This document shows, in pieces, positions 25,936 through 45,152 of a DNA stretch of 64,000 nt; within the stretch, counting starts at the first letter, position 1, and each line of letters opens with the position of its first letter. The stretch is taken from contig JACTVC010000049.1 in assembly GCA_018417955.1 (NCBI GenBank), positions 62,001 through 126,000 of the forward strand. Reading direction: 5' to 3'. Below the pieces are notes generated by a model. The model made no database searches. It worked only from the letters and a program-made list of their open reading frames with translations, and was not told the origin of the DNA. Origin of the DNA: Laccaria trichodermophora. Its lineage: Eukaryota > Basidiomycota > Agaricomycetes > Agaricales > Hydnangiaceae. A program made the translations under genes and the position numbers.

Positions 25936-25940
25936 GGCAT
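25936..25940. repeat. target site duplication, left copy
   Basis: GGCAT lies directly before the 5' LTR and matches 39040-39044 directly after the 3' LTR, as expected for Ty3-type integration. Confidence 0.9.
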
Positions 25941-26311
25941 TGTAACGGCGGACAGACGTCCTAGTACGATTACATGATATGGGACCATCGTTTACCTTTG
26001 TTTATCTCTTGTTGTATATAGTTGAGCTACGTTTTCTTTGAATTACTTACTTGATAACCACACTATATACGCATGTGGATTGGGTCACGGATACGTCTTA
26101 CGGCTGGGCAGCCTAATGCCTCCCCTCCGGGATACCAGAGCCCGACGTCGGGTGACAACGTCCCCTTTCCTGGGTCACTGGAAACTCCTCGCGTGAAGTC
26201 GTGCCACGCCTTCACGCCCCGTTCCCTCTCTCGCGTACCTCTCATATTCTCCGCTGCCATCAAGCGCGCGCGACAACATCGAGAAGCCACGGACGATAAC
26301 CCGGTTTCACA
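25941..26311 (+). repeat. 5' LTR, 371 bp
   Basis: It starts TG and ends CA. TATATA at 26015-26020 is a candidate TATA box for the element's own transcription. It is identical to the 3' LTR at 38669-39039. Confidence 0.92.
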
Positions 26312-26312
26312 A

Positions 26313-26330
26313 TGGTGGGGGCACCGCGGA
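26313..26330 (+). other. probable primer-binding site
   Basis: TGGTGGGGGCACC begins two bases after the LTR end. The opening TGG is what the CCA end of a tRNA would pair with. I cannot name the tRNA. Relatives of the Tf1/sushi type prime themselves from the folded RNA end instead, but I found no clear complement within the LTR. Confidence 0.6.
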
Positions 26331-26351
26331 CTTCATCAAGATGAAGTCCGC
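26326..26351. repeat. perfect 12-bp palindrome beside the primer-binding site
   Basis: GCGGACTTCATC (26326-26337), AA, then its exact reverse complement GATGAAGTCCGC (26340-26351). An outer GGCAC/GTGCC pair (26320-26324 and 26354-26358) could extend the stem past small bulges. The RNA would form a strong hairpin overlapping the primer-binding site. Confidence 0.8.
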
Positions 26352-26381
26352 AAGTGCCTAGGCGCGGAGAAACCTCAAATG

Positions 26382-26425
26382 GTAAGCCCTTCTGACAGGA
26401 TCTGTCAACTAACTATTATATCCAG
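26382..26425 (+). promoter_or_regulatory. possible intron, or splice donor for downstream ORF expression
   Basis: An ATG at 26379 is followed at once by GTAAGC, a strong donor. CTAACT and TATCCAG at 26418-26425 look like a branch site and acceptor 44 nt further on. Splicing there would lead to a stop at 26468, so it would not make Gag. The donor might instead join to an acceptor before the third ORF. This is a sequence-motif guess only. Confidence 0.3.
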
Positions 26426-26600
26426 CCTACCTACAACAACAAACACCTTAGACCCCTCGACGGACGATGAGGTCTTATCAGGAGCTACTCGGCCCTCGAT
26501 AGCGCGATCACTCGCTGCTCACGGAAGCCCTCTGCCTGAGGACCCGTTATGTTCAACTCCAACACTCATCACCCCCGTCACTGTGGAAGATGAAGAAGTC

Positions 26601-26693
26601 CATCATGAATCCTCTCGGCTCTCGATAGCTCCATCATGAATCCTCTCGGCTCTCGATAGCTCCATCATGAATCCTCTCGGCTCTCGATAGCTC
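26601..26693 (+). repeat. three exact 31-bp tandem repeats in the gag leader
   Basis: Units at 26601-26631, 26632-26662 and 26663-26693 are identical (CATCATGAATCC..GATAGCTC). Because 31 is not a multiple of three, each copy shifts the reading frame. An open frame running from 26073, including ATG 26379, stops in the second unit (TGA 26637-26639), and the gag frame opens at 26660. With a single unit the two frames would be continuous. Confidence 0.9.
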
Positions 26694-26887
26694 CATCGCC
26701 CACCACCTTCGAGGCTTCCTCGCTTAAACCTGTGTCAGCGCGAACTCTCGCTGCTCTCGAAGGCTACAAATTGACAAGGAAGCCTAAGTCTCTCCCATTC
26801 GAATTGAGTTATGCCCGCTGCCGTTGCGCGAGCCCTCTCCCTATTCGGGACCCTGATAGTGTCGGTTCCCTGACCCCCTCAGCCCTA

Positions 26888-29800
26888 ATGATGGTAACTC
26901 CAGGGCTACCTGTACCCTGTCTACGCCCGGACCATCAATCACCTCCTCATAAGCCAGGAGGCTGCCAGCGAATCGACCACTCACTCTACTCTATGAGCTT
27001 ATCGATCCCCTCCGCTGGAGAGGACCTCGCCAAAACCAAACCCCGTAACACCAACAACTCGGCTAGTCGAGACCTCGTCACCCCCTTGACCACTAGGAAG
27101 AAGGGAAAGGGCGTATCTATGACGGAGGAACCAGACGCCGATGCGATATCCCCTACGCATCGCAGTCCAATGCCCTCCTCGGGACCAGTTCTCACTGGAC
27201 CCCACACCCCGGACAACTCAACAAAAGAAGGACCCTCCGCGAACCCCGCTGCTTCATCAAGCGCGAGTCGATTACCGACGATCAACAAGTCTGCCTCTAT
27301 TCCTCCCGCTGCTCCCAAGAGCGCGATCAATACTCAGCAGAATGTCCAAAACAAAGGGATACGTAGACCTTCGAACACTGGCGCGAGTCGATCCGCTGCC
27401 TCGGTACAGGAGGGCCCCGCTCAGCACGATCCCGTCTTCGTCAAGGATCTATTGAATCTACGAGATGCCATGCAACGCTCCATCAAGGACAGCGGAGCTC
27501 AGTCCTCCACATCCAGTCAGACGGAAGAAGGGGAGACTGAGACCACGCCTACGGATCGTGGAAATGCGTCCGAGTTCAATACAGTCTTCTGGGACATCGA
27601 ACCATACAAGGACTTACCAATCTGGGTGGAACCCGTCACGCTCTCCGCTGCTCGTATGTTCGGAGCTTTCGACTCCGCCAAAGACGAGGATGTCCTTGTC
27701 CCTTTGGGGGCTATTGATGGAGTTCTGCCAGGACGAACGGGGTACGAATGTGAGCAACTGAGGTGTGCCATCGAGCTGGTATACAAAACGCCCAGAGATT
27801 GTCGATGGGACGACCTAGGGGCGGCTGTACGAAAATTCGCCGGTTACGAGATCGGTAAGAAGGATCTCGTAAGATACACGGGAACCGAAATCGTCTACGG
27901 AGTAGAACGCTCCCTGCTGCTGGAAGCTTCGCAAGTCGTAGTGACCGTGGATCAGGTACTGCAAGTCCTAGCCGACTTCTTTCATAAACGAGAACGTGAT
28001 CGATTCACACTCGACTATGGTTTTCTTTTCCTACGATTGCTCGCTTCCTACACGAGCCGGACTGAAATACTGGCCACCTATCGCGTCCTGCAACATCGGA
28101 CGACCGTAGCGGCCAAGCATCTTGCGCAAGAACTCAACGCTCTTACACGGTTATATGGATCTGAGGATCAAATGTCAGTCAGTTCTTATGAGTCTACTAG
28201 AGGGTCACTGCGATCTATTTTCGGTAATGGGTCTGCCAGGAGTAAAGTCGGACAGTTACTAGCAAGACCTGAATACTACGAAAAGTTACCAAAGGACCTG
28301 ACTGAGATTGCTGCATATCTGCGCAATCGAGCCTACAAGGACGGTCCCCTCCCCAGGGGATTTACTATACATCGCCCTCATGGATTTCAAGGACCTTCTA
28401 GGCTGGGAACTACCACTTCCGAGAACTCCTCCGTGACCCCGACTACCAGTCAAGCCGCTGCGCGTAATCCCGCTGCAACTGAAGGCCTGAATGTTCGGTT
28501 CGCTTCAGATACACCAGTCCCTGGATCCATTTCGGTTCTGTTGTCTAAAAAGCACCCGGTATCTAGATTGCCAGGCATTGGAACGATAGGGGTTTCTGCT
28601 GTAGGCACCTCATCGGTCAAGACAGGAACTTCGAATAACGGCCCCACGATGGTAGCCTCGAGTAGTAATCGTAATCCAGTTCGAGCACCTGCTGCGTTCA
28701 GTTCGCGCATACCCAGTCCTAAGTCGTGGACCAGTTATACATTTCGGTCTCGAAATACTCAGCCTGAAACTAGATTGGGTCAGCCTTCTAACGGGAATGA
28801 AGAGCCCAACCCCAGAAGTAATCCCTTGCCTAATCGACAAGATCCTCCGTCCGGAGGATCCTCTTCCTCTGGTAATAGTGGAAACGCTGGAGGGGGCGGC
28901 AACCCCAACGGACCCAGCGGACCGAATCCACCGGCTTCTTGGTATGCTCCTCCGCGAGACAACGGCGGAGGTGGAGGTAACGGAGGTGGCGGTGGAGGAG
29001 GAGGTGGAGGAGGCGGCGGAGGTGGGAACAACGGTGACCCTGGCTCGCTAGACCCCAATATTCCTCCTTGGTGGCGAATCCCCGAAGAATGGCAGCTGAA
29101 CTGCAAGCTTAATAGCGCGGTGTTGCCGGAATGGGACGGAGCAGGTGAAACTGCAATCAACTACCTGAGCCACATGGGATTCCTCGCTGCATTAGGTACC
29201 AAGATGAAGGAAGGGATCGCCCAGCTTGCTCCTTTCAAATGGACTTCCTATGCCTTAAGTTGGTGGGAGACCCTGCCGGCCCCGGACCGCGTCTACTTCT
29301 CCATCAATTGGGACAACATGATGATTGGGATCCAAGCTCAGTTCTTGGATGAAGAATGGGTGCGAGAACGAACCTTCGAGTTCGACGAAATGACCTTCAG
29401 GAATAAAGGTCATGAACAGGAAAGCCCGCTGGAATATATTCAGCGTCGCATCAGATATCACCACTTCCTACATCCCGATGAAGTTGATGGGCCCACCGCT
29501 GTCGCTCGAGTACTTCGTCGGCAACCAGTGGAGTGGTCGCATTACCTCAGTGAAACTACCTGTCCTACGATACTGTCCGTTCAATCGGTAGCTAAACGGA
29601 TGAGGAATGGTCTCGTAACCTCCTGGCAGCAGGCCGAACGCACTAAGCGGCCTGCGCCTTATTATAGGAATCGTCGTTCGCGCGAAGTACACGCAGCGGA
29701 AACGGAACCTAACAACCCAGGGATACAATTAGAGTCCTATTCAACCGACGAAGAAGGAGAATTAGAACGAGACGTCAATTTCACTTCTAACAGCAATCGT

Positions 29801-30115: not shown

Positions 30116-30241
30116 CTTCTTAAAACTTACGCAACTGAAATCCACTCGTCGAAAGGTGGTTGTAGAAACTCTTTCGCAGCAGAAAAGCGCGTAGAATCCG
30201 CTGCAGATCTGCGCGATAAGGAAATAGAACCCGAGCAACGA

Positions 30242-33200
30242 ATGGACGCGAAACTTCATAAGGTCTACCCGGCCCATCGAAATGCGCATAAGACTAAGGG
30301 TTACAACAAAGGGAAGAACAAGGAGGAACTAAGCTCTCCACAGAAGGACGAGCGAGCGCTCGGCAAGGGAAAAAGGATTAGTCGCATCTATGAACCGGGG
30401 CGTATCTTCCCTGCAGTTAAGGGTCGTTCATTGCCCGAGGGCATGGGGTCTCTTGGAACAAGAGCGTTGCACATACCCGCAAAAGTAGGTAACCTCGAGG
30501 TGGAGTCTATCCGCGCTCGATTGGACTCAGGAGCGGACATTACACTCATCTCTGAGGAATACTGGAAATCGATGTCAGACGCTCCTCGTCTACGCGAAGG
30601 GTTGAGAATGAAACTGTATCAGCTCACGGGAGGAGCTAAAGTACTCGGATACATTAAGACTGACTTATTCGTCCTCGCACGAGATGAGTCGATCGTCAGC
30701 TTCGAGCTCGAAGCCTACGTTGTTCGAAACATGAACGTGCCTATTCTCTTGGGAGAAGATTTTCAGACTACCTACGAACTCGGGTTAACCAGGTATGCCT
30801 CCGGTCATTGCGAGGTAGCCGTCGGTCGATCAGGGCGCGTGTTACTCGCCGCCTCTACTGAAAATATCGATTTGGGATTCGAAATCAGAGCCGCACATAC
30901 CACACAGTCGTTCGTGCGAAGAAAAGCAGTTGCTCGCGCCAAACCCAAAATCAGCGCGATCAAGCTCATGGAAGTTGTGGCCTTGGACGACACCTTGATT
31001 CATCCGAATAGCGTGTGTAACGTAGCTGTGCACGCAATGTTCGACGGCCGAGAAGATTGGATCGTGGAAAAGGTCATCATTGGGACGGAAGATCAAAACG
31101 TAATGGCTGCTCCTACTACGTGGATTAGCGCCTCCTGTCCCTTTATTCCAATCGCCAACCTGAGTGCCCATCCCCGTTACGTTAGAGCAGGAGAGGTAGT
31201 GGGGTATCTGCATGACCCTGAAAATATGATAGATAAGCCTAGAGATGAGGAACATTTAAACAGAATGGCTGCTTCCGCCGAAGCGCTGCGGAAAACTATA
31301 GTAGGCACCCTCAAAGCTCAAGACTTAGCTTCAGCTGCGAATCCTATGGCCGATTCCCCTGGGCACGACGATCGTTTCGAGGAGAACGAATCATGGGGAC
31401 CAAAAACTACGGCTGTACCGGAGGACCCCGTAAGCGGAGATGTGGATCAACTGGTTAATCTAGGACCAGACATTCCAGAGGAATACCGGGAACGTTTAAC
31501 CGATGTCTTGCGCAGAAATGCTGCAGCTTTCGGCGTCAACGGGCGACTAGGGCATATGGAAGCGCAAGTACAGATCCCGCTGCTACCTAATACTCAACCG
31601 ATTTCGGAGCCAATGTATGGAGCCTCACCGGCAAAAAGGGAAGTAATCGACCAACAGATGAAAACCTGGTTCGAGGCCGAAGTTATAGAACCTTCCGTCA
31701 GCCCGTGGGGCTTCCCAGCCCTTGTGGTCTATAGGAACGGCAAGCCTCGACTCGTAATCGACTACAGGAAGTTAAATGCGAAGACCATTCCGGATGAATT
31801 CCCCATTCCTCGACAGTCCGAAATTATCCAGGCGTTATCAGGATCCCAAGTGTTATCATCATTCGACGCATTAGCAGGATTTACTCAACTCGAAATGGCC
31901 GACGAGGCCAAGGAGAAAACTGCCTTCCGATGCCACCTGGGTCTGTGGCAATTTAAAAGAATGCCATTCGGGCTCAGGAACGGGCCATCTATTTTCCAGA
32001 GAGTGATGCAAGGGATACTAGCCCCGTTTCTTTGGCTATTTGCCCTAGTTTACATCGACGATATCGTTGTGTATTCCAAGAATTGGACGGAGCATCTCGA
32101 GCATTTGGACCGAGTTCTAGGAGCCATCGCCGCTGCTGGGATAACTCTATCCCCAGCCAAGTGCTACGTCGGCTATTCATCTATACTACTGCTAGGACAA
32201 AAGGTATCAAGACTGGGCCTCTCCACTCACAAGGAAAAAGTTCAAGCCATCATGGATCTTGCGCGGCCTACCTCCGTCGGCGACCTGCAGAAATTCTTGG
32301 GAATGGTCGTTTATTTTTCCTCGTACATACCCTTCTATTCCATGATCGCTGCGCCCCTGTTTGATCTTCTGAAGAAGGGTGCCAAATGGCAGTGGCGCGC
32401 GGAACAGGAAGTGGCTTATAACCAAGCCAAGGACGCACTTGCTAATGCCCCCGTGTTAGGACACCCTATCACAGGACAAGCCTATAGACTGTATACCGAC
32501 GCGTCGGACATCGCGCTGGGTGCCAGTTTACAACAAGTACAGATGATTCAAGTCAAGGACCTTAAAGGCACCCCTTGCTATGCGAGGCTGGAAACCGCGT
32601 GGAACGCCAATAAAGACGTACCTAATCTCGTCGCTAAGCTTCAGGACCAGCATGAAGTCGAGCAACGGGATGAGTGGGGGGCGACTTTGGACGAGACAGT
32701 CATTCATGTCGAGCGCGTAATTGCTTATTGGAGTAGGACTTTCAAATCGGCCGAACGGAACTACAGTGCTACCGAAAGGGAAGCTCTAGCAGCAAAGGAA
32801 GCGCTAGTTAAGTTCCAACCATTCATTGAAGGAGAAAGCATCACGTTGATTACGGACCACGCTGCCCTAGTGTGGGCGCGGGTCTACGAAAATGCCAACA
32901 GGCGACTAGCGGCCTGGGGGGCGGTATTTGCTGCATACCCTGGCCTCAAAATCGTCCATAGAGCTGGCAGGATTCACTCCAATGTTGATCCTTTATCACG
33001 TCTTATTCGGATTCCCCCGCACGACTCTCCGCTGAACGACGATAACGTCCCTATCGAACAAGACGACTTGAAACGTGGGATAGCTCAGAAAGTGGAAGAC
33101 AGGATTTTCAGAGCAGCTGCGCCTAGAGCGGCCTTTTGCGTCATGTGGTGGGAAGACATTGTGGACAAAATGGCAGCCTCGGTACGAACTAGGCGCCAAC

Positions 33201-34942
33201 TCGCGGCTGATAAAAAGCGCGAACTCCCAGAAGTCGTCAAAGACTTCGTCAGCGTGGAAGCTCCGAATGACACAGAATCTTTGCCTGACTCAGACGAACA
33301 AGGAGACATTATGCCATTCACTAAGGCTGACCCCTGGACATACCCCGTAGGGGTTAAACCCTCTGCTTCTCCCCCTGAAGAAGAATGGACCAGCCGTTCT
33401 CAATTACTGATATCCGTAGACCCGAACATCTGTAAGGAATTCGCCGAAGGCTACGAAATAGATAGTTTCTTCGCACCTCGATACCTGAAGGTGCAACCGA
33501 ACGAGAAAACTATTATCTCAGCCAGCCACTTCCAGAAAGGACAGGACGGTTTACTATACTTCATAGACGCGGGTTGGAAGACCCGATTATGCGTCCCTAA
33601 ATCCAAGATCAATTACATACTGTGGTGGATCCATGAATCACCCTACGAAAGTGCTCACGCTGGACCTCGCCACTTTATAGCGCGATTGCAAGAGCTTTTC
33701 TATTGGCCCTCTATGAATAAGGACGCGGAAGCATTTGCGACTACTTGCGATGTCTGTCAAAAGATCAAGGTAGATCACCGAGCCAAAATGGGCGCGTTAA
33801 GACCCGCGCACATACCGTCCAGGCCTTTTTCAACAGTCTCTATGGACATGATAACAGGCTTACCCGCGTCAGGAGAACAGGGCTTTAACGCTATACTCGT
33901 TATAGTGGATAAACTCACCAAATTCGCCATCATTATACCCACTCATACTACGTTAACTCAAGAAGGATTCGCTAAGCTATTCGTGGAAAGGGTAGTTAAT
34001 GTCTATGGGTTGCCCGAAGTCATAATTTCGGACCGAGACCAAAGATGGGCCACCATATTCTGGAAATCAGTAGTGGCTAACTACGGTAGCGTCATGGCCT
34101 TGTCATCGGCTCATCACCCGCAAACTGACGGACAAACTGAAATACTCAATGCTACAATCGAACAAATGCTGCGCGCTTACGTATCTTCGGACAAGGAGAG
34201 CTGGTCGAACTGGCTAAGCGTACTAGCTCACTCCTATAATAGCAGCGTGCATTCTTCCACCAGATATACTCCAAACTTCTTATTGATGGGATATAACCCT
34301 AGAATCTCCACCGGAGTCATCACGCCCGAGATTGATCCTTCTCGACGACCCTTCTTGCCCAGTCAATCCGCTGAAGACTTCGTCGAAATGCTAGAAATGC
34401 ATAGGAACTATGCTAAAGATGCTATAGCCCTGGCGCAAGACCGGCAAGCCAAAGCGCATGACAAGAAGCGCAGGCCTATGCAAACTCTGAAAATAGGCGA
34501 CTACGCCTTGGTCAATCCTCATTCCTTAGAACTAGTCGACGTAGAAGGAACAGGCAAGAAGCTGGTGCAATGGATGATAGGTCCCTTTGAAGTCATTGAG
34601 GAGATCAATCCTCAAGTGTACCGTCTAAGACTACCCGACACGTACTCGATGCATCCAGTATTCAACTTAGATCACCTCAAAAAATATAACCTCTCGCCGG
34701 AAGAGTTTGGGGAACGGACCGAATTACCTTCGACTCGAGATCTGAAAGCTTCTGAAGAATACGAAGTTGAAGCCATCCTAGGACATCGGTTAGTCGGCAA
34801 AAAGAAGGCCAACCGAAGAATGTATTTAATTAGATGGAAAGGTTATGGGCCTGCGGACGATTCCTGGATCTCGGAATACGACCTCAGGAATTCGCCTCAA
34901 CTTAAGCGAGAATACCTTGAGTCTAAAGGTCTAGCCATCTAA
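30242..34942 (+). CDS. pol: Pol polyprotein: protease, RT, RNase H, integrase, chromodomain
   Basis: 1566 codons from ATG 30242, or a UGA-readthrough fusion with Gag. Aspartic protease: LDSGADITLIS at 30521. Reverse transcriptase: WGFPALVV, LVIDYRKLN, FDALAGF and the catalytic YIDD at 32051-32062. RNase H: YTDASDIALGAS, then ERNYSATEREALA and ITDHAALVW. Integrase: an HHCC zinc region with CDVCQKIK, then a DDE core (MDMITGLP, ISDRDQRW, TDGQTE). At the C-terminus, 34750-34940, is a chromodomain (YEVEAILGHR, MYLIRWKGYGPADDSWI), which in chromoviruses steers integration to marked chromatin. No stop or frameshift is seen, so the proteins look functional. Confidence 0.93.
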   Translation: MDAKLHKVYPAHRNAHKTKGYNKGKNKEELSSPQKDERALGKGKRISRIYEPGRIFPAVKGRSLPEGMGSLGTRALHIPAKVGNLEVESIRARLDSGADITLISEEYWKSMSDAPRLREGLRMKLYQLTGGAKVLGYIKTDLFVLARDESIVSFELEAYVVRNMNVPILLGEDFQTTYELGLTRYASGHCEVAVGRSGRVLLAASTENIDLGFEIRAAHTTQSFVRRKAVARAKPKISAIKLMEVVALDDTLIHPNSVCNVAVHAMFDGREDWIVEKVIIGTEDQNVMAAPTTWISASCPFIPIANLSAHPRYVRAGEVVGYLHDPENMIDKPRDEEHLNRMAASAEALRKTIVGTLKAQDLASAANPMADSPGHDDRFEENESWGPKTTAVPEDPVSGDVDQLVNLGPDIPEEYRERLTDVLRRNAAAFGVNGRLGHMEAQVQIPLLPNTQPISEPMYGASPAKREVIDQQMKTWFEAEVIEPSVSPWGFPALVVYRNGKPRLVIDYRKLNAKTIPDEFPIPRQSEIIQALSGSQVLSSFDALAGFTQLEMADEAKEKTAFRCHLGLWQFKRMPFGLRNGPSIFQRVMQGILAPFLWLFALVYIDDIVVYSKNWTEHLEHLDRVLGAIAAAGITLSPAKCYVGYSSILLLGQKVSRLGLSTHKEKVQAIMDLARPTSVGDLQKFLGMVVYFSSYIPFYSMIAAPLFDLLKKGAKWQWRAEQEVAYNQAKDALANAPVLGHPITGQAYRLYTDASDIALGASLQQVQMIQVKDLKGTPCYARLETAWNANKDVPNLVAKLQDQHEVEQRDEWGATLDETVIHVERVIAYWSRTFKSAERNYSATEREALAAKEALVKFQPFIEGESITLITDHAALVWARVYENANRRLAAWGAVFAAYPGLKIVHRAGRIHSNVDPLSRLIRIPPHDSPLNDDNVPIEQDDLKRGIAQKVEDRIFRAAAPRAAFCVMWWEDIVDKMAASVRTRRQLAADKKRELPEVVKDFVSVEAPNDTESLPDSDEQGDIMPFTKADPWTYPVGVKPSASPPEEEWTSRSQLLISVDPNICKEFAEGYEIDSFFAPRYLKVQPNEKTIISASHFQKGQDGLLYFIDAGWKTRLCVPKSKINYILWWIHESPYESAHAGPRHFIARLQELFYWPSMNKDAEAFATTCDVCQKIKVDHRAKMGALRPAHIPSRPFSTVSMDMITGLPASGEQGFNAILVIVDKLTKFAIIIPTHTTLTQEGFAKLFVERVVNVYGLPEVIISDRDQRWATIFWKSVVANYGSVMALSSAHHPQTDGQTEILNATIEQMLRAYVSSDKESWSNWLSVLAHSYNSSVHSSTRYTPNFLLMGYNPRISTGVITPEIDPSRRPFLPSQSAEDFVEMLEMHRNYAKDAIALAQDRQAKAHDKKRRPMQTLKIGDYALVNPHSLELVDVEGTGKKLVQWMIGPFEVIEEINPQVYRLRLPDTYSMHPVFNLDHLKKYNLSPEEFGERTELPSTRDLKASEEYEVEAILGHRLVGKKKANRRMYLIRWKGYGPADDSWISEYDLRNSPQLKREYLESKGLAI

Positions 34943-35162
34943 TCAAGCCCCTAACCGCTCCAGGCGCTCCTTCCTAAACCATAACCATAACTCTACGTCT
35001 ATTAGGTAATACTACTGTACAGCCGAATTGAGACTCCGAAGGTCCCTTTCTAAAACAAACCTTGAACTCGCCTGGTCAACAACCATCAATACCCCTTCCA
35101 GCTTGCCTGCCTCGAGCGTCCCGCCGCTGTAAAGCGCGAACGCGAAGGGCGCAGTACGAAGG
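34943..35162 (+). other. spacer between pol and the third ORF
   Basis: About 220 bases with no open frame. CTAACC at about 34951 and CTAAACC at about 34973 are possible branch-site-like motifs, and several AG dinucleotides precede 35163. This leaves room for a splice acceptor, which I cannot pin down. Confidence 0.3.
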
Positions 35163-38100
35163 ATGTCAGGTCGACCTCAACACATTCCTGGACCTGGAAA
35201 CAATGACACGAGGCGCTTCATTCCCAGCCGGATACCCAGTTTCGCGGACTATGACCGAATTCCTTTACTGCCAGCTCCGCCTTCCTACCCCCTGCCCGTC
35301 GCCATTCGTCGCAGATTGGTACGAATGGGAGAAAGGTTGTGGGAAATCATCTCCCCGAATTCATATCGTCATGCTTACTGTCCGGGCTCGAGACCTGACA
35401 ACCTGAATCAGTATATCAACTCTTTTGAAGAACAGAACCGTTGTTACGATGGACACATAGGACCATTTGACCCTACAAAGAACGCCCAGCTCTGCCTTCC
35501 TGGAAAGGAATGGAGAGCCCTAATCATAACGCCCGCTGCGGGAGATCCGCGCGATAGTCCTGAATTTGAATCGGTTAATAACTGCTGGAGGAGCGATGGA
35601 ACTCCCGCTATAGACACTGGAAGATTACAAGACGACTACATCGACAAATTAATAAAAATCAATCAAGAGACGGACCGACGAATTGAAACCTTACACCAAG
35701 CGTACCTGGACCTTTACTTCTTCGACAACGAGCAGAGGGAGCTGTGGAGTGTCAGCGTTCGTCCTTCCTACCCCACTTCTGAACAAATCGCCTCTCTCCG
35801 ACAACTCAGACGATTCGCAGCTGCCGTTGACCGCGTCACGGAAATACAGCGCGGCATAAAGGACAAGCGTGCATTCATTGACTATGTGGCGCGTTTGCCT
35901 GGTTCTCGTTTCTGGATGCCGGATTCGGAAGCCGAGGTAGATTTCGCCGATGATCGCTACATAGGGGTCTGGTTAAATGGAATGGAAGAACGTACGGCCC
36001 GCTGGTACTTGAAAGAAGGAATTCCTTGTTTCATAGCCAGAGAAATCCCACCCACTGAGCGCGTGCAACTCGCTGCTCGGGAAGCTATGATCGACTTTGC
36101 CGCCGGAACCAACTCTTCACCGATTCATTGGAATGTGAACGAGTACGACGTTAGAGCCATTTCCCGAGGGGACTTGACTATAACGGATCCGTTGAGATCT
36201 TTCGATCCTGGTTGGATTTGGCCAGTCCCTCCTAGCAAACCTGACTCCAAAAACCGTAAAAAGGCAAAGGATCAGGAGACCGGCAATTATAGCCCTCCTC
36301 CGCCGGTGACGGTTATCGTGGACAGAGACAGAGTCCCATGGATCAAACCCCCGCCTGTTCAAAGAGCTGAACCTTCGCGTGCCGGCGCTCCACCGACGGA
36401 GAAGAAGAAATGGAGGAAATTCGTGGAGCAACATCAGCCAGAAGGAACGTTCAGGGAGGGTGGAGCTAAGACAAACCCTGACCATCGAACGCATAGTCGT
36501 TACGATCGAGAGAGACGTTGGCATATTTTCTTCCTGCACGCTTCCAAGCCACCTCCTGGTTGTGTCTCGAACGTGAGCGTATACGGCCAACCGTGCCCTC
36601 CAGGAATCTATCGTGATTTGGGTAAAGTTCGCCTTCGACAGCCTTCGTGGATCTACAACAGTCTGGACCCTCAACCTGGCGACGCAGGAAGGGAAGCCCC
36701 AACCCCTAAACCTGAAGATCTGCCCTACCTGCGAGATCCCCCTCGTCCTCCTTCTGATCACGATAGCGATAGCGACGACGGCCATTACCCGGACCTTGAC
36801 TTCCTAGTTCAGTCAGTGAGGACCGATGAGAATACTGGGAGCGCGACCGTTACCCTCGCAGCCCCTGGCATGAATTCCTTACCCGCAGCCATAGGCGCGA
36901 CGGAATCCCCAGTATCCCAGGCCACAGAGCCTAACCCAGCACCAACTACTTCCTCTGCCGCCTGTACGGAGAAAAGGAAATCAGATGAGGAAATGTCACT
37001 AGGAGATGAGGATTCAGCAGGAGAACCAATGGGCCCGCAGATTCCCCTCAATTTCATGGTCGAAGACTCGATTGACGTAAGGATGGATACGGTCCCGGAC
37101 GACCCCCTGGAATTCGCGTCTTCTTACTTAACGCTCTACGGATTGCCGCTTACGCTGGATTTCGTGTCCATTCAGATGTTAATTATGGATATAGGAACTA
37201 GACTCCAAGTACCAATACGACGAATCTTCAGGACGACAGTCGGTCAGCACCAGAGCTTCTGGCTCGAAGCAGGGACGGTTAACCAGGCGAGACAGCTGAG
37301 GAGTTACATGCACCACCGTCAAGAGAATGGAATCGAGTTGCTGGCCACCTTCACTAACTACGAGAACTACCTTAGAGCTCTAAGGCAGTCGACTCACACC
37401 TGGCCTAGTTCCTCTGCCCTCTATCCAATCCCTAGTGTCGACCCTCAGCCCTCTCAGCCACCCCCTGCTAGCTCAACAGGTGCTCCCTCGGCAGCAGCTG
37501 GTTCTTCTCCTCGCAGGACAACAAGCCGGGATCGACCAACTCGTCGATATCAGCGTAGTCCTAGGGTGTCAGATCGCTATAACCATGCCAAGCGCTCGCG
37601 TTCTAGGTCTCGCTACCGTTCACCAGAGCGACCTGCATACTCTCGACGGCGTTATCAGCGTTCTCCTTCTCCCCGACCCAGGAATCGAGCTCACTACCGA
37701 CGCTCCGCATCCCCGAGAAGATATCGCCATCTCTCGCGGTCGCCATCCCCTAAGTTGAGTCCGCCGTTGATGGAGAGCTCTTCCCTCGTTCACGCCCAAC
37801 CGCCGATTATCCAAGGTGTCTCCGGGCATGCACTCCTCCCTAGCGCTATCGCGCAAATCCCGCCGCCTTCGAGCGCGCTTCCTGTAGTCCCTAATGCCCC
37901 AGCTGCTCTCAACCTGTCCCCTAACGCCCCGCTGCCTTTTGGCGCGAACGTTGCCTTCATGTGGTCGCCCTCGGGAAATACCTTTAGTCCAGTCTTGTTG
38001 CAGGGGAACACCGCTGTCATACCTTATCCCTTGCCTCCGTCAGGACCTACCCCGAGTGCTCTGTTACCCTGGCCAGTAGCGGCAGCGCTGCCATCCATGA

Positions 38101-38336
38101 CTGGGAACTCAGCAGCTCGCCTTGACACTGACAGGCCCTTAGCGCTACGCATCTCCAACGCGATAATTCCTTCCCCTAACTCCCCTCCTCCTGAGAACGT
38201 CCGACCTACCTTGATGTCCCGCATGACGGACGATCTGGCCTCCAGATTGCGCGACCCAGAGGGGTCTACCTCGCTCTCTGCTCGGCTATCGGACCCTCAC
38301 TATCCCCTAGCTGCTAGGCTAGGAGGGGATGATTGA
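35163..38336 (+). CDS. extra ORF of the Ty3 element with RS-rich region; function unknown
   Basis: 1057 codons in a different frame from pol. Residues 1-340 look folded and contain GVWLNGMEERTARWYLKEGI (about 35967), a motif I associate only with uncharacterised basidiomycete proteins. An acidic/Pro-rich middle follows. About 37060-37395 (LEFASSYLTLYGLPLTLDF onwards) has alternating hydrophobic strands reminiscent of an RNA-recognition fold. 37500-37760 is rich in Arg-Ser and Ser-Pro (RSRSRYRSPERPAYSRRRY), like the RS domains of splicing factors. The tail is Pro/Ala-rich. No transmembrane helix or signal peptide is seen, so it is not an envelope protein. An RNA-binding or nuclear role is inferred. 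The frame is intact over 3.2 kb in a recent element, which argues that it is used. Confidence 0.75.
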   Translation: MSGRPQHIPGPGNNDTRRFIPSRIPSFADYDRIPLLPAPPSYPLPVAIRRRLVRMGERLWEIISPNSYRHAYCPGSRPDNLNQYINSFEEQNRCYDGHIGPFDPTKNAQLCLPGKEWRALIITPAAGDPRDSPEFESVNNCWRSDGTPAIDTGRLQDDYIDKLIKINQETDRRIETLHQAYLDLYFFDNEQRELWSVSVRPSYPTSEQIASLRQLRRFAAAVDRVTEIQRGIKDKRAFIDYVARLPGSRFWMPDSEAEVDFADDRYIGVWLNGMEERTARWYLKEGIPCFIAREIPPTERVQLAAREAMIDFAAGTNSSPIHWNVNEYDVRAISRGDLTITDPLRSFDPGWIWPVPPSKPDSKNRKKAKDQETGNYSPPPPVTVIVDRDRVPWIKPPPVQRAEPSRAGAPPTEKKKWRKFVEQHQPEGTFREGGAKTNPDHRTHSRYDRERRWHIFFLHASKPPPGCVSNVSVYGQPCPPGIYRDLGKVRLRQPSWIYNSLDPQPGDAGREAPTPKPEDLPYLRDPPRPPSDHDSDSDDGHYPDLDFLVQSVRTDENTGSATVTLAAPGMNSLPAAIGATESPVSQATEPNPAPTTSSAACTEKRKSDEEMSLGDEDSAGEPMGPQIPLNFMVEDSIDVRMDTVPDDPLEFASSYLTLYGLPLTLDFVSIQMLIMDIGTRLQVPIRRIFRTTVGQHQSFWLEAGTVNQARQLRSYMHHRQENGIELLATFTNYENYLRALRQSTHTWPSSSALYPIPSVDPQPSQPPPASSTGAPSAAAGSSPRRTTSRDRPTRRYQRSPRVSDRYNHAKRSRSRSRYRSPERPAYSRRRYQRSPSPRPRNRAHYRRSASPRRYRHLSRSPSPKLSPPLMESSSLVHAQPPIIQGVSGHALLPSAIAQIPPPSSALPVVPNAPAALNLSPNAPLPFGANVAFMWSPSGNTFSPVLLQGNTAVIPYPLPPSGPTPSALLPWPVAAALPSMTGNSAARLDTDRPLALRISNAIIPSPNSPPPENVRPTLMSRMTDDLASRLRDPEGSTSLSARLSDPHYPLAARLGGDD

Positions 38337-38624
38337 ATGGAGGTAGATTCCCCTGCAGCCATGAATCCTAGGGAGTTCGAGGAAGCGCACTTAGCGGCGA
38401 TCAACAACATGATGGCCTCAGCAGGACCCTTGGTGTTGGATCCGGTACAGTATGATTACCCGGGCACCAATGCTTCGCACAGCGACTTGGAAGACGGTGA
38501 AATGGAAGATCAAATGGCGGATTTAGGGTGGAAAAGGACTAAACGAGGCAAACGTGCTGGCCGACGGATTCAAAACATTCGGAAGCGAGATGAAAATCGT
38601 AGGCGCAGACAAGATCGACGTTAA
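38337..38624 (+). CDS. small acidic-basic ORF abutting the third ORF
   Basis: 95 codons. The ATG (38337-38339) follows directly on the TGA (38334-38336) of the preceding ORF, in the same frame. It could be made by stop-codon readthrough as a C-terminal extension, or by reinitiation. The N-terminal half is acidic (DLEDGEMEDQMADLGW); the end is strongly basic (KRTKRGKRAGRR, RKRDENRRRRQDRR), resembling a nuclear localisation or RNA-binding tail. No family recognised. Confidence 0.6.
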   Translation: MEVDSPAAMNPREFEEAHLAAINNMMASAGPLVLDPVQYDYPGTNASHSDLEDGEMEDQMADLGWKRTKRGKRAGRRIQNIRKRDENRRRRQDRR

Positions 38625-38658
38625 TCAGCTCAAGGATTGAAGGATGCTCCAATCTCAT

Positions 38659-38665
38659 GGGGGGG
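38659..38665 (+). other. polypurine tract
   Basis: GGGGGGG followed by CTT lies just before the 3' LTR (38669). It is the usual site of plus-strand priming in LTR retrotransposons. Confidence 0.65.
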
Positions 38666-38668
38666 CTT

Positions 38669-39039
38669 TGTAACGGCGGACAGACGTCCTAGTACGATTA
38701 CATGATATGGGACCATCGTTTACCTTTGTTTATCTCTTGTTGTATATAGTTGAGCTACGTTTTCTTTGAATTACTTACTTGATAACCACACTATATACGC
38801 ATGTGGATTGGGTCACGGATACGTCTTACGGCTGGGCAGCCTAATGCCTCCCCTCCGGGATACCAGAGCCCGACGTCGGGTGACAACGTCCCCTTTCCTG
38901 GGTCACTGGAAACTCCTCGCGTGAAGTCGTGCCACGCCTTCACGCCCCGTTCCCTCTCTCGCGTACCTCTCATATTCTCCGCTGCCATCAAGCGCGCGCG
39001 ACAACATCGAGAAGCCACGGACGATAACCCGGTTTCACA
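38669..39039 (+). repeat. 3' LTR, 371 bp
   Basis: Identical to the 5' LTR as read. It is followed by the right copy of the GGCAT duplication (39040-39044). Confidence 0.92.
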
Positions 39040-39261
39040 GGCATATTTAGCTGAAAAACCGGTCTTGAACTGGTTGTAACCAGTTTGGACCAAGACCAGT
39101 CCAAAGACCGAAAAAGACTGCAGTCTTGGTCTTTTCCGGTCCTGGTCCGGTCTTTTGAGGTTTTAGGAATTGTGTGGACCGGTCTAGGTCTCGGTCTTTT
39201 CGTTTTGGGTCAAAAAACCGGACTGGACTGGACTTTCAAGCACTAAAGATGAGGGCCTAGA

Positions 39262-39484
39262 TAAATAGATGGGGATCATACCTGGTTGAGGAGTGAGATG
39301 TCAAGATGAGAGCCTAGTGGAAAGGGGAATCTTGTTCTCACTCCTCAACTGTGGGGGGTATATCTAAAAATATATTGAGGCCTGGTGGCACACATCCAGG
39401 CATGGATCACGTGAGTTACAGGAGAGAGCAGCGGCTCTGAATTGTGTGTCAGCGGCTTAGCCTTGGACGGTTTTCATTGGACTT
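39262..39484 (-). repeat. older, diverged copy of the Ngaro A repeat
   Basis: On the plus strand it follows the A repeat (39652-40019) in order: ACCTGGTTGAGGAGTGAG, GAGAGCCTA, TCTCACTCCTCAACTG, GGCATGGATCA, GAGCAGCGGCTCTGA, GTCAGCGG and CATTGGACTTGA. It carries many substitutions and gaps, whereas A1 and A2 are identical to each other. It abuts B2 directly, so the young element sits in an older relative. Confidence 0.65.
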
Positions 39485-39605
39485 GACCAATGACGCTTAA
39501 GCTTGATGGCGTTACAGAGGCGACGTGGGACATGAGATAGCCAAAAAATCAGAAATCGGGTGCCGCGGGCAGCCGATTCCGACACATTTCCACTCGAGGT
39601 ATGGC
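39485..39605 (-). repeat. B2 split repeat
   Basis: 121 bp, identical to 40018-40138. It contains GATGGCGTTACAGAGGCGAC and the end GAGGTATGGC. It forms the 3' end of the element. Confidence 0.88.
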
Positions 39606-39651
39606 GAGGTATGTAATGTACATGTAAATATATAGGAAGAGGGTGGGTGGG

Positions 39652-40019
39652 TGACGAAAAATGAGAGAAAAGCTCAACTATGAGGATAGAGTGAGCTATT
39701 GTAACAACAACCCTAGAGAAGAAAAGAAATTCGCACCTAGCTGAGGGAGTGAGGTGTTGAAACGAGAGCCCTACAGAAAGGGGGGTTTCATCTCACTCCT
39801 CAGCTGGTAGTGCGAATCTAAAATAAGATAAGATCCAAGCGTGGATCATGAAGCGTGTATCCAAGCGTGGATGTCGAAGCACATATCCAAGCGTGGATAT
39901 TCAATGAGCAGCGGCTCTGAGTTACGCGTCAGCGGACACGGAGAGTTTGAAGTTGTGCGCGTGTAACTCAAGCTTTGGCCAGCTTTCATTGGACTTGAGT
40001 AAACAACGTTTAAACTCGA
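39652..40019 (-). repeat. A2 split repeat
   Basis: 368 bp, identical to 44785-45152. It contains three spaced copies of CCAAGCGTGGAT and an inverted pair (GAGGGAGTGAGGTG / CATCTCACTCCTC). It overlaps B1 by the shared GA at 40018-40019. Confidence 0.88.
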
Positions 40020-40138
40020 CCAATGACGCTTAAGCTTGATGGCGTTACAGAGGCGACGTGGGACATGAGATAGCCAAAAAATCAGAAATCGGGTGCCGCG
40101 GGCAGCCGATTCCGACACATTTCCACTCGAGGTATGGC
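40018..40138 (-). repeat. B1 split repeat
   Basis: 121 bp, identical to B2. It lies directly against A2, as expected for the B1-A2 junction of split-repeat elements. Confidence 0.88.
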
Positions 40139-40423
40139 TATAGTCCTATATTGAAGAAATAAAAAATAAAGTGATGAGTTCACATAGTGAAGGATGTGAG
40201 GAGCGGGGGGAAAGGTCTCGGTACATGCAGGATAAAAATTCAAAAAATTACAACTTGTCCGATAATAAAGTGGTTGATGTCCATAGTAGTCGAGATGGCG
40301 TAAGGCCATACGTGTTGGGGTTGATAAGAGTCCATGGGTGAGAAGAGTCTGTTGGTAAAGTAGATAAGAAAAGTCTATTGAGAAAAAGAAAAGGAAAAAA
40401 GGTCGTTTCTCCAAAGCGTGGAG

Positions 40424-41539
40424 TTAGTTCTCCAAAGCGTGGAGAAAGGTGGTTTGGGATCGCTTAGTTTGTCCGAAAAGGAGTGCTTGAATGAGCACGG
40501 GGTTTTTTCGAACGTAGATTTTGAAGGCGTCTGATGCCCATCTGCCAATAGCTTGAATTATTGAGGGTGGTACACCATTCTCGGCTAGGGAGGTGGCTCC
40601 TCCAGCACGGAGTGATTGGCTGGCAGTGTCGGAATTGAAGAATCGACGCAATCGTCGTATGAAAAAGGAGCGGGTAGGTACCGTGCCTTTGCTGGTGAGC
40701 CATAACAGTGAGCTAAATGGGAATTTAGCATCACGGGCTTGTAGATACTTCAAAAATTGTTTGTGAGGGTCAAACTTGTGTGGGTTTTTGCGTATGATGA
40801 TCGTATTTCCTTTGAAAAACCTGTCGGCCTTATGTCCAGGCAGGAAGAACTTGTAGGAAACGTCGTCAGATTGCACCGAGCTGCGCTTTGTGACCTTTCT
40901 CGGATCTCGGAGTTCTGGGTCGTCAGGGTAAGTCATTTCACCTAGTCGGAGTAGTGCAAAGAAACCCGTCAATAGCTGAGCAAGGAAGAGCGTGTCGTCA
41001 TAATCAGTGGAGGAGGAGAGCGCATCGACGACGGTTTCGAGGTCTCCTATGGTGAGAGCACGTTTGCGCGAGGTGGGGACGGCTCGCATTCTTTTGCAGC
41101 CCTGCAATGTACGATGTACCAGAGCAGAGTTGCGAGAGGACCGAATATTCGGGAAGTAGGGTTCCAATTGATGGCATATGCCTGATAGGTACATTCCCAC
41201 CGAATCGGGTTTGATGTGGTGGCACATGTAGACGGTGAATAAGCTTAAGGTATCAGGGGTTGGGTCTAGTGGGTAGTCGTGCATTTTCACGAAGTTTAAG
41301 TAGGAATTGAGTGCTGATCCGTAATTTTTCCAGGTTGAATTGTCCACTGCTTGTCTGAGGGCAATAGCACGCTCATGGACGAGGCGCTCCCGCGTCCAGA
41401 CTTCCCTGAGGGGTTGTCTGGACTTGACATTTGACAAGATCATTTTTGCGCAGCCCCCAGCGTCAATTGAATATGGTAAGTCCAGGCACATGTTGTCGTG
41501 CAAGGTCGAAATTGCTCCGCAATATCGCATCGGCAACAT
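40424..41539 (-). CDS. tyrosine recombinase of the Ngaro-like element
   Basis: 371 codons from ATG 41539; the first codons overlap the end of RT/RNase H, and internal ATGs are also possible. It joins the circular DNA copy to the target. Landmarks: core-binding part (YGSALNSYLNFVKMH), first catalytic Arg in FFALLRLGEMT, a Lys in a FFLPGHKADRFFKG hairpin, the box II region SQSLRAGGATSLAENGVPPS with the second Arg, then QAIGRWASDAFKIYVRKNP, where Tyr in KIY is the nucleophile. The His common two residues before the Leu-Arg of box II is replaced, which I recall as usual in basidiomycete relatives. No stop or frameshift. Confidence 0.85.
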   Translation of the reverse strand: MLPMRYCGAISTLHDNMCLDLPYSIDAGGCAKMILSNVKSRQPLREVWTRERLVHERAIALRQAVDNSTWKNYGSALNSYLNFVKMHDYPLDPTPDTLSLFTVYMCHHIKPDSVGMYLSGICHQLEPYFPNIRSSRNSALVHRTLQGCKRMRAVPTSRKRALTIGDLETVVDALSSSTDYDDTLFLAQLLTGFFALLRLGEMTYPDDPELRDPRKVTKRSSVQSDDVSYKFFLPGHKADRFFKGNTIIIRKNPHKFDPHKQFLKYLQARDAKFPFSSLLWLTSKGTVPTRSFFIRRLRRFFNSDTASQSLRAGGATSLAENGVPPSIIQAIGRWASDAFKIYVRKNPVLIQALLFGQTKRSQTTFLHALEN

Positions 41540-44745: not shown

Positions 44746-44784
44746 AGGAGTTAGATTGAGGTACGATGATACGCAGTATTATAT

Positions 44785-45152
44785 TGACGAAAAATGAGAG
44801 AAAAGCTCAACTATGAGGATAGAGTGAGCTATTGTAACAACAACCCTAGAGAAGAAAAGAAATTCGCACCTAGCTGAGGGAGTGAGGTGTTGAAACGAGA
44901 GCCCTACAGAAAGGGGGGTTTCATCTCACTCCTCAGCTGGTAGTGCGAATCTAAAATAAGATAAGATCCAAGCGTGGATCATGAAGCGTGTATCCAAGCG
45001 TGGATGTCGAAGCACATATCCAAGCGTGGATATTCAATGAGCAGCGGCTCTGAGTTACGCGTCAGCGGACACGGAGAGTTTGAAGTTGTGCGCGTGTAAC
45101 TCAAGCTTTGGCCAGCTTTCATTGGACTTGAGTAAACAACGTTTAAACTCGA
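44785..45152 (-). repeat. A1 split repeat (5' end of element)
   Basis: 368 bp, identical to A2. The element's outer end is ..TTTAAACTCGA at 45152. The right flank then begins GTAAACTCCC, which continues the older A-like relic seen on the left side. Confidence 0.88.

What the first reader, a model, noticed from the sequence alone, without database searches (positions are those of the whole stretch)
35163..38336. A chromovirus carrying a 1057-codon third ORF with an RS-rich domain
Ty3/gypsy elements normally end with pol. Here an intact 3.2-kb ORF follows pol. It has a folded N-terminal part, a possible RNA-recognition fold and an Arg-Ser region like those of splicing factors (37500-37760), and no envelope features. 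Its survival in an element with identical LTRs argues for selection. A retroelement-encoded SR-like protein could control splicing or nuclear export of the element's own RNA.
Basis: partly seen in the sequence, partly recalled or inferred. Interest (0 to 1): 0.85.

Follow-up and report, generated by a model that had tools for sequence, protein, structure and literature searches.

The report
Retrotransposon third gene, repeated RNA helix
A mushroom jumping gene carries a third gene, likely for an RNA-binding protein, and its own sequence is dotted with some twenty copies of the same small kinked hairpin, which suggests that the element steers the fate of its own RNA much as some retroviruses do.

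Summary
Confirmed, with corrections. An LTR chromovirus (25941-39039; LTRs identical, 371 bp; GGCAT target duplication) carries an ORF after pol. The 1057-codon frame is truncated: an in-frame TGA (38334-38336) cuts off a conserved basic tail continuing to 38621. The family is old: 30 of 31 host-genome matches starting at residue 1 lie just behind pol; pol and ORF3 distances agree (Mantel r 0.84, 14 lineages); between-lineage dN/dS is 0.10-0.17; relatives occur in other Agaricales and in two further element lineages here. AlphaFold/Foldseek support an RRM (651-748); there are an RS region, a basic tail and a confident N-terminal module with no fold match found. New: the element's sense strand holds 22 copies of one helix with a one-base bulge (dinucleotide shuffles: 0.18), closed by a loop at either end (two circular permutations). 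Its sixth pair is Watson-Crick in 77/92 and 46/50 distinct sequences, all four types; copies in gag and ORF3 exceed synonymous-codon shuffles. Best reading: ORF3 is a Rev/CERV-like regulator of the element's own RNA, the helices its likely target (shown: family, selection, helix array; predicted: RRM; inferred: binding, export). Main rival: Gag-bound packaging signals. Against: two sister lineages lack the helix where read.

The parts
25936..25940 (.). Target site duplication GGCAT (left copy; right copy 39040-39044)
25941..26311 (+). 5' LTR, 371 bp, identical to 3' LTR
38669..39039 (+). 3' LTR, 371 bp
26313..26325 (+). PBS-like TGGTGGGGGCACC, identical in the 7 other leaders read (L033-L037, L042, L043)
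26328..26349 (+). Stem GGACTTCAT-CAAG-ATGAAGTCC, kept with small changes in the other leaders read
26382..26425 (+). Candidate spliceosomal intron in the leader (GTAAGC ... CTAAC ... CAG); recognisable in 7 of 8 leaders read, deleted in L037
26993..30115 (+). gag (likely ATG at 26993; CCHC knuckle by eye), ends at a stop that splits the gag-pol frame in this copy
30242..34942 (+). pol: RT, RNase H, integrase, chromodomain
35013..35022 (+). Block TACTGTACAG between pol and ORF3 (RTACAG in 19 of 22 aligned copies); candidate 3' splice site of an ORF3 mRNA
35163..38336 (+). ORF3 as found (1057 codons, ends at an in-frame TGA 38334-38336)
38337..38624 (+). Continuation of the ORF3 frame in relatives: conserved tail with Arg/Lys-rich end; cut off in this copy
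35163..36797 (+). ORF3 N-terminal module, residues 1-545: AF2 mean pLDDT 79, pTM 0.62, no fold match found
37098..37406 (+). RRM-like domain, about residues 646-748
37503..37772 (+). RS-rich region, residues 781-870
26252..26268 (+). Bulged helix, form AB (in 5' LTR; sixth pair not Watson-Crick)
26502..26518 (+). Bulged helix, form BA (leader)
26738..26754 (+). Bulged helix, form BA (leader)
26816..26830 (+). Bulged helix, form AB (leader; sixth pair not Watson-Crick)
27247..27265 (+). Bulged helix, form AB (gag)
27307..27325 (+). Bulged helix, form AB (gag)
27381..27399 (+). Bulged helix, form BA (gag)
28460..28476 (+). Bulged helix, form BA (gag)
29680..29697 (+). Bulged helix, form BA (gag)
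30175..30215 (+). Three overlapping bulged helices (AB 30175, BA 30187, AB 30199) at the gag-pol junction; sixth pair Watson-Crick only in the third
30835..30852 (+). Bulged helix, form BA (pol)
32860..32880 (+). Bulged helix, form AB (pol)
33202..33221 (+). Bulged helix, form AB (pol)
35122..35138 (+). Bulged helix, form AB, just before the ORF3 start; loops TTCG, GTAA, GTGA and others among copies
35534..35553 (+). Bulged helix, form AB (ORF3 residues 124-130; conserved at four-fold sites)
36059..36076 (+). Bulged helix, form BA (ORF3 residues 299-305)
36884..36899 (+). Bulged helix, form AB (ORF3 residues 574-579)
37861..37877 (+). Bulged helix, form AB (ORF3 residue 900; sixth pair not Watson-Crick in this copy)
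37930..37946 (+). Bulged helix, form AB (ORF3 residues 923-928, PLPFGA)
38980..38996 (+). Bulged helix, form AB (in 3' LTR; sixth pair not Watson-Crick)

Best explanation
ORF3 is an element-encoded accessory RNA-binding protein of an Agaricales chromovirus clade. Together with an array of like bulged RNA helices spread over the element's own transcript, it controls that transcript after transcription: most likely by coating the unspliced genomic RNA in the nucleus and taking it past splicing or retention to the cytoplasm, as Rev does in lentiviruses and CERV in the nematode element Cer1. Shown: the gene family, its place behind pol, purifying selection, co-inheritance with pol, and the helix-forming sequence array. 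Predicted: the RRM fold; an intron in the leader and a splice acceptor before ORF3, so that ORF3 could come from a spliced mRNA. Inferred: that the helices form in RNA, that ORF3 (RRM and/or basic tail) binds them, and that export is the outcome.
For: ORF3: between-lineage dN/dS 0.10-0.17; strongest constraint in residues 1-545 and the RRM (pooled pN/pS 0.12-0.14; tail 0.19, RS 0.32, linkers 0.39-0.48); 30 of 31 residue-1 match rows behind pol; pol/ORF3 Mantel r 0.84, 0 of 5000 permutations. RRM by AF2/Foldseek, found by profile in eight homologues beyond the closest group and in lineage C. RS region and basic tail. Helices: 14 AB + 8 BA on the element's sense strand; dinucleotide shuffles mean 0.09 + 0.09; 0 on the + strand of the other 50.9 kb. 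ORF3 of 14 lineages: 43 AB vs 0.72 and 13 BA vs 0.47 in synonymous shuffles; window gag 5 vs 0.12, ORF3 5 vs 0.06 (0 of 500 shuffles reach either), pol 3 vs 0.18 (2 of 500 reach it). Sixth pair Watson-Crick in 77/92 AB (permutation mean 29.5, max 49) and 46/50 BA (18.2, 30), all four types. Other bulge designs are rarer. The loop sits at either end of the same helix, so the helix rather than the loop is conserved, the kind of target known for Arg-rich motifs (recalled). Leader intron signals in 7 of 8 leaders. CERV precedent, passages read.
Against: No binding, probing or export data. Lineage B keeps ORF3 but no RRM is detected in its 12 sequences examined (P0014-P0023, L030, L031), and none of its three 5-kb stretches has a sense-strand AB or BA helix. 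Lineage C has the RRM but no helix in the 4.6 kb read (L040, L041, L044). So the helix is not tied to the RRM across lineages; ORF3 could use different targets or do something else. RS content is modest in the window protein. The acceptor-like RTACAG is missing in 3 of 22 aligned copies (L015, L016, L020). The helix design with the bulge on the other strand is also fairly common in the 12 other loci (AB 15, BA 13): 11 of the 13 BA lie at the site at residue 124, which fits both designs, but 14 of the 15 AB lie in pol or the gap and are unexplained. Genome-wide, loose patterns exceed the reversed control only 1.6- to 2-fold (551 vs 267; 913 vs 559); only the strict 6-pair AB form stands out (247 vs 11).
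Confidence: 0.45

Rival explanations
1. The helices are dispersed packaging signals read by Gag (or its CCHC knuckle) during particle assembly; ORF3 acts elsewhere.
For: Copies lie in both LTRs, leader, gag, pol and ORF3, as in dispersed packaging-signal models for phage MS2, picornaviruses and HBV (seen only as titles and abstract starts in the listing). The sister lineages that keep ORF3 lack the helix where read.
Against: No Gag-RNA data. The HBV case in that listing has its motif in the loop, whereas here the loop varies and can sit at either end of the helix.
Confidence: 0.27
2. ORF3 is an RNA-binding protein that modifies splicing or counters host silencing rather than exporting the genome.
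For: RRM plus RS region resembles splicing regulators; the 50 Foldseek rows listed include RBM39, TIA-1, U2AF65 and Tra2-beta. ORF3 diverges much faster than the C-terminal 425 residues of pol (mean distance 43% vs 12% over 14 lineages), as antagonists often do.
Against: Between-lineage dN/dS stays at 0.10-0.17 and pooled regional pN/pS at most 0.48 (highest single pair and region 0.72). The RRM is internal and not detected in lineage B. No silencing-related domain was found by Pfam.
Confidence: 0.18
3. ORF3 is a structural or envelope-like virion protein.
For: It lies where env lies in retroviruses; the N-terminal module is confidently predicted with no match found.
Against: No transmembrane stretch or hydrophobic N-terminus; RRM, RS and basic tail point to RNA and nucleus.
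Confidence: 0.06
4. The helix is a DNA-level motif (protein-binding or recombination site) and ORF3 is unrelated to it.
For: The two half sites are GC-rich and carry CpG; some half sites occur alone (35 CGCNGC and 39 GCGCG on the sense strand).
Against: Oriented: 22 sense vs 3 antisense in the element. The sixth pair covaries among sites, and a one-base bulge at one place is the most frequent design.
Confidence: 0.04

Closest known systems
CERV of Cer1 (Ty3/gypsy-type element of C. elegans), PMC10309623 (abstract and passages seen)
   Same: ORF between pol and 3' LTR without envelope resemblance; made from a spliced mRNA (only candidate splice sites here); nuclear protein required for export of genomic RNA; no homology outside its group.
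   Different: CERV has no recognised RNA-binding motif, shares N-terminal exons with gag and is 517 aa; no dispersed helix array is mentioned in the passages seen. ORF3 has an RRM, RS region and basic tail. No sequence comparison with CERV was run.
Lentiviral Rev and its response element (recalled; one background passage)
   Same: Arg-rich segment and structured RNA sites with a bulge in the unspliced RNA; several copies of the protein on one RNA.
   Different: Rev is small and binds one complex RNA structure; here about 21 separate short helices lie along 13 kb.
Cellular SR proteins (RRM + RS domain; recalled)
   Same: RRM-like fold followed by an RS-rich stretch.
   Different: RRM is internal after a 545-residue module without a fold match; RS content is moderate; a further conserved proline-rich part and basic tail follow; encoded by a retroelement.
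Fungal chromoviruses (Laccy1, Laccy2, MarY1 and others), PMC2864245 (section 5 and passages read)
   Same: Gag-pol with chromodomain; elements up to more than 13 kb; a figure legend lists an 'add. [quoted passage not shown]
   Different: The text read gives no sequence, domain or RNA feature for the additional ORF, and the figure is not held, so which element bears it could not be seen. Membership of the window element in one of these clades was not tested.
Dispersed RNA packaging signals (MS2, picornaviruses, HBV), PMC6281560 and others (listing with abstract starts only)
   Same: Many copies of one short hairpin motif along a genomic RNA.
   Different: Described for viruses with other proteins; here the motif is a bulged helix in two circular permutations in an LTR retrotransposon.

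Membership tests
Chromovirus (chromodomain Ty3/gypsy LTR retrotransposon) | RT, RNase H, integrase, chromodomain in pol, in that order | tested here: met
   Pfam RVT_1 2.2e-26, RT_RNaseH_2 9e-25, Integrase_H2C2 1.2e-13, Chromo 7.6e-11; integrase core rve 0.0041, below its cut-off
Chromovirus (chromodomain Ty3/gypsy LTR retrotransposon) | LTRs and target site duplication | tested here: met
   371-bp identical LTRs, GGCAT on both sides
SR protein | At least one RRM | tested here: met
   By predicted fold only: AF2 about 651-748, Foldseek RRM hits E 4.8e-4 to 8.1e-4; Pfam finds none
SR protein | RRM at the N-terminus followed by an RS domain of 50 or more residues, over 40% RS/SR (definition recalled) | tested here: not met
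   RRM starts at about residue 646; 14 RS/SR dipeptides in residues 781-870
Rev/CERV-like exporter of retroelement RNA | Encoded between pol and 3' LTR, not envelope-like | tested here: met
Rev/CERV-like exporter of retroelement RNA | Made from a spliced mRNA | tested here: inconclusive
   Leader intron signals in 7 of 8 leaders; RTACAG before ORF3 in 19 of 22 aligned copies; no transcript data
Rev/CERV-like exporter of retroelement RNA | Binds structured sites in the element's own RNA | tested here: inconclusive
   Candidate sites exist; binding not testable here
Rev/CERV-like exporter of retroelement RNA | Required for genomic RNA export | not testable with these tools
   needs experiment
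Envelope protein | Signal peptide and transmembrane anchor | tested here: not met
   Kyte-Doolittle maxima 1.07-1.48 over 19 residues, N-terminus not hydrophobic, five copies

The most novel reading that the evidence does not exclude
A retrotransposon has evolved its own RNA-handling system in trans and cis: a third gene with an N-terminal module of unmatched fold, RRM, RS region and Arg-rich tail, and a matching code of about 21 copies of one bulged helix per genome, written in two circular permutations through LTR, leader, gag, pol and ORF3 in different reading frames and held there against synonymous drift. The protein coats the RNA at these sites to export, protect or package it.
Probability: 0.35. 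Interest if true: 0.92.

Novelty: new variant of a known kind. Interest (0 to 1): 0.82.

Why it matters
How LTR retrotransposons get unspliced genomes out of the nucleus is, to my knowledge, worked out in few cases such as Cer1 and lentiviruses. Here gene and candidate RNA target can be tested together, in many natural variants (14 lineages compared in one genome). The circularly permuted bulged helix is an unusually clean natural experiment on what an RNA-binding protein reads, and could become a tag/binder pair. It also gives domains and a likely origin to Agaricales 'hypothetical' or 'uncharacterized' proteins (Laccaria, Hypsizygus, Favolaschia, Gymnopilus, Crepidotus, Mycena) that are homologues of a transposon gene.

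Tried and rejected
Recent host-gene capture: rejected as far as searched. 30 of 31 residue-1 match rows sit behind pol; the exception (C23:2271428) has no pol match in the 5.9 kb read upstream, with a pol match about 10 kb upstream. Of lineage B 3 of 10 places, of lineage C 2 of 7 places were checked for pol; all 5 have it. The searches score limited candidates (43 of 175; 46 of 88), so a distant host gene is not excluded.

Neutral passenger: rejected. The youngest pairs with countable changes (dS 0.007-0.041, 7 rows) give 0.30-1.23; 5 pairs have dS 0; 228 of 276 pairs have saturated dS and were not used. In pol the two youngest pairs give 1.23 and 0.25.

Intron loss by reverse transcription of spliced RNA in L037: my note called it clean; comparison with its sister L042 shows the deletion ends 13 nt beyond the acceptor, so it proves nothing. 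L038 was aimed wrongly, held no leader and was dropped. Helix tied to the RRM: not upheld in lineage C. With a narrower pattern the window pol had no helix; with the 4-10 nt pattern it has 3. The motif was found by looking at one site (before ORF3) and then generalised, so shuffle counts are post hoc; the general sixth-pair test and the bulge-variant table were made afterwards. Distinct sequences at homologous sites are related by descent, which the permutation does not correct; within the window element alone 16 of 21 sites (LTR counted once) have a Watson-Crick sixth pair.

Nothing on this protein family or the helix was found by ten searches, in a library without most subscription papers; one 2010 figure legend names an additional ORF of unknown function. 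Papers: passages of PMC3248453, PMC3411680 and PMC10309623; section 5 and passages of PMC2864245; all others as listings only.

Full report
OBSERVATION. The frame 35163-38336 is real. It lies in an LTR element 25941-39039 with 371-bp LTRs that are identical and flanked by GGCAT. Pol carries RT, RNase H, integrase and a chromodomain. ORF3 starts 220 nt after the pol stop. The frame is truncated in this copy: TGA at 38334-38336, after which the same frame runs to 38621 and encodes a basic tail found in other copies and database homologues. A second stop separates gag and pol, which by length form one frame of 2,735-2,970 codons in 10 of 34 pol match rows in the genome. The copy is thus young but not coding-intact.

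FAMILY. The host genome (59.0 Mb, unnamed) is close to Laccaria: four L. bicolor predicted proteins are 86-95% identical to ORF3 copies here. It gave 55 ORF3 match rows. Of 31 rows that start at residue 1, 30 have pol within 1 kb upstream on the same strand; in the 22 copies aligned the gap is 164-220 nt. Two more lineages exist. B: pol 61-71% identical, ORF3 of 983-987 aa, about 28-33% identity, 10 places; the three checked (C23, C1, C19) are behind pol, one of them broken. C: ORF3 about 30%, 7 places; the two checked (C1:2926086, C16:513537) are behind pol (64-70% over 167-194 residues), about 1 kb downstream in L040. Database searches gave 35 proteins, named ones from Laccaria bicolor, Hypsizygus marmoreus, Favolaschia claudopus, Gymnopilus dilepis, Crepidotus variabilis and Mycena vitilis; Favolaschia and Hypsizygus were looked up as Agaricales, the order of the others is recalled. 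Their genomic context could not be seen.

SELECTION. NG86 dN/dS between lineages with dS 0.2-2 is 0.10-0.17. By region, pooled over four pairs, pN/pS is 0.12 (residues 1-360), 0.14 (361-545), 0.14 (RRM), 0.19 (tail), 0.27 (proline-rich part), 0.32 (RS), 0.36 (986-1057), 0.39-0.48 (linkers). The C-terminal 425 residues of pol have 0.02-0.06 in six between-lineage pairs. Distances of pol and ORF3 agree (Mantel r 0.89 for 22 copies, 0.84 for 14 lineages, no permutation of 2000 or 5000 as high) and the trees share their main groups. ORF3 was therefore inherited with pol.

PROTEIN. Full-length AF2 was confident only for about residues 651-748, an RRM-like fold; Foldseek's 4 hits at E<=0.001 are RBM39 (two entries), IMP3 and TIAR. 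A profile of this domain, run over 38 family sequences, finds it in eight homologues beyond the closest group (P0024, P0025, P0026, P0029, P0031, P0032, P0033, P0035) at E 4e-10 to 3e-3 (P0012 only at 0.36), and an extended profile finds it in lineage C (3e-35) but in none of the 12 lineage B sequences. RS-rich stretches occur in the window group and in P0031, P0034 and P0035 (up to 24 RS/SR in 60 residues). Residues 1-545 with 36 sequences fold with mean pLDDT 79; no match was found. There is no transmembrane segment.

THE HELIX ARRAY (new). A conserved block lies just before the ORF3 start: CGC-N-GC-X, a loop, X'-GC-GCG. Its loop is TTCG in many copies and GTAA or GTGA (GNRA type) in the window's group. 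The same motif recurs through the element. In form AB (CGCNGC, 4-10 nt, GCGCG) there are 14 places and in form BA (GCGCG, 4-10 nt, CGCNGC) 8 on the sense strand; 500 dinucleotide shuffles give means of 0.09 and 0.09, maxima 2 and 3. The antisense strand of the element has 1 and 2; the other 50.9 kb of the window has 0 and 0 on + and 1 and 0 on -. In ORF3 of 14 lineages AB occurs 43 times against 0.72 in 300 synonymous-codon shuffles (maximum 4) and BA 13 against 0.47 (maximum 4). In the window element gag has 5 (shuffle mean 0.12, 0 of 500 reach it), ORF3 5 (0.06, 0 of 500), pol 3 (0.18, 2 of 500). The motif is read in different frames (PAA.GA, PLPFGA), so the protein does not explain it.

AB and BA are the same double helix closed at opposite ends: in AB the loop joins the X-X' end, in BA the CGC-GCG end. 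The X-X' pair was not part of this search pattern. It is Watson-Crick in 77 of 92 distinct AB sequences (permutation mean 29.5, maximum 49 of 5000) and in 46 of 50 BA (18.2, 30), with all four pair types; in the window element alone in 16 of 21 sites (LTR once). Other designs (no bulge, two-base bulge, moved bulge, bulge on the other strand, 1x1 internal loop) occur 0-2 times per form in the element against 13 and 8 (LTR once), and 1-16 times in 12 other lineages' loci (108 kb) against 88 and 28. The two largest exceptions are the moved bulge (AB 16; it contains CGCCGC, which fits both patterns) and the other-strand bulge (AB 15, BA 13; 11 of these BA lie at the residue-124 site, which fits both; 14 of the AB lie in pol or the gap and are unexplained). 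The bulged base is T 79, C 20, A 19, G 1. Genome-wide the strict form CGCNGCT-N4-6-AGCGCG occurs 247 times against 11 for the reversed control; looser forms are less distinct: 551 vs 267, BA 913 vs 559.

EXPRESSION SIGNALS. After an invariant PBS-like stretch and a conserved stem, the leader holds a short intron-like segment (window 26382-26425: GTAAGC, CTAAC, CAG). Its signals are recognisable in 7 of 8 leaders, one with a GC donor, and deleted in one. Between pol and ORF3, RTACAG is present in 19 of 22 aligned copies (TACTRTACAG in 15), not in L015/L016/L020. Both fit, but do not prove, a spliced ORF3 mRNA.

MECHANISM. The parts fit a protein that binds the element's own RNA at many like sites. 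CERV of Cer1 shows that a gene in this place can be the exporter of genomic RNA (PMC10309623, passages). An Arg-rich tail and a bulged helix are a known kind of pair in lentiviruses (recalled). Against this stand lineage C, which has the RRM but no such helix in the 4.6 kb read, and lineage B, which has neither in what was read. Either the tail rather than the RRM reads the helix, or each lineage has its own target (L031 has three copies of another short motif that can form a hairpin before ORF3), or Gag reads it. I put 0.45 on the ORF3 model and 0.27 on Gag packaging signals.

NOVELTY. An additional ORF in some fungal element is noted in a 2010 figure legend, without further data in the text read; ten literature searches gave no description of this protein family or of the helix array. 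I rate it a new variant of a known kind (accessory post-transcriptional regulator of a retroelement), with a cis-element array for which I found no precedent in LTR retrotransposons.

Noticed in passing
39481-45000: Next to the element lie direct repeats (39652-39867 = 44785-45000; 39481-39605 ~ 40014-40138), a 371-aa minus-strand ORF (40424-41539) that by eye resembles a tyrosine recombinase, and ORFs (41463-41846, 41901-42749) that by eye resemble RNase H and RT: a DIRS/Ngaro-like arrangement. Pfam gave no hit at E<=0.01.
   Followed up: partly
L031:207-320; L030:160-225: Lineage B elements carry 2-3 copies of another short motif before ORF3 (CGCGCGG...CTGCGTTGAA, with small changes) that can also form a small hairpin: perhaps a lineage-specific counterpart of the bulged helix.
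   Followed up: partly
G000:C3:865113-865780: Five BA helices within 700 bases, some exactly 57 bases apart, perhaps in a leader made of tandem repeats.
   Followed up: no
26328-26349: Just behind the PBS-like stretch a stem GGACTTCAT-CAAG-ATGAAGTCC is kept, with a mismatch or wobble in some, in the 8 leaders read; possible priming or dimerisation structure.
   Followed up: partly
   Followed up: no
G000:C4:184300-186300 (L039): A degenerate, more distant ORF3 copy (profile E 1.4e-18) with one AB helix in sense orientation, part of a cluster of motif hits on the same strand.
   Followed up: partly
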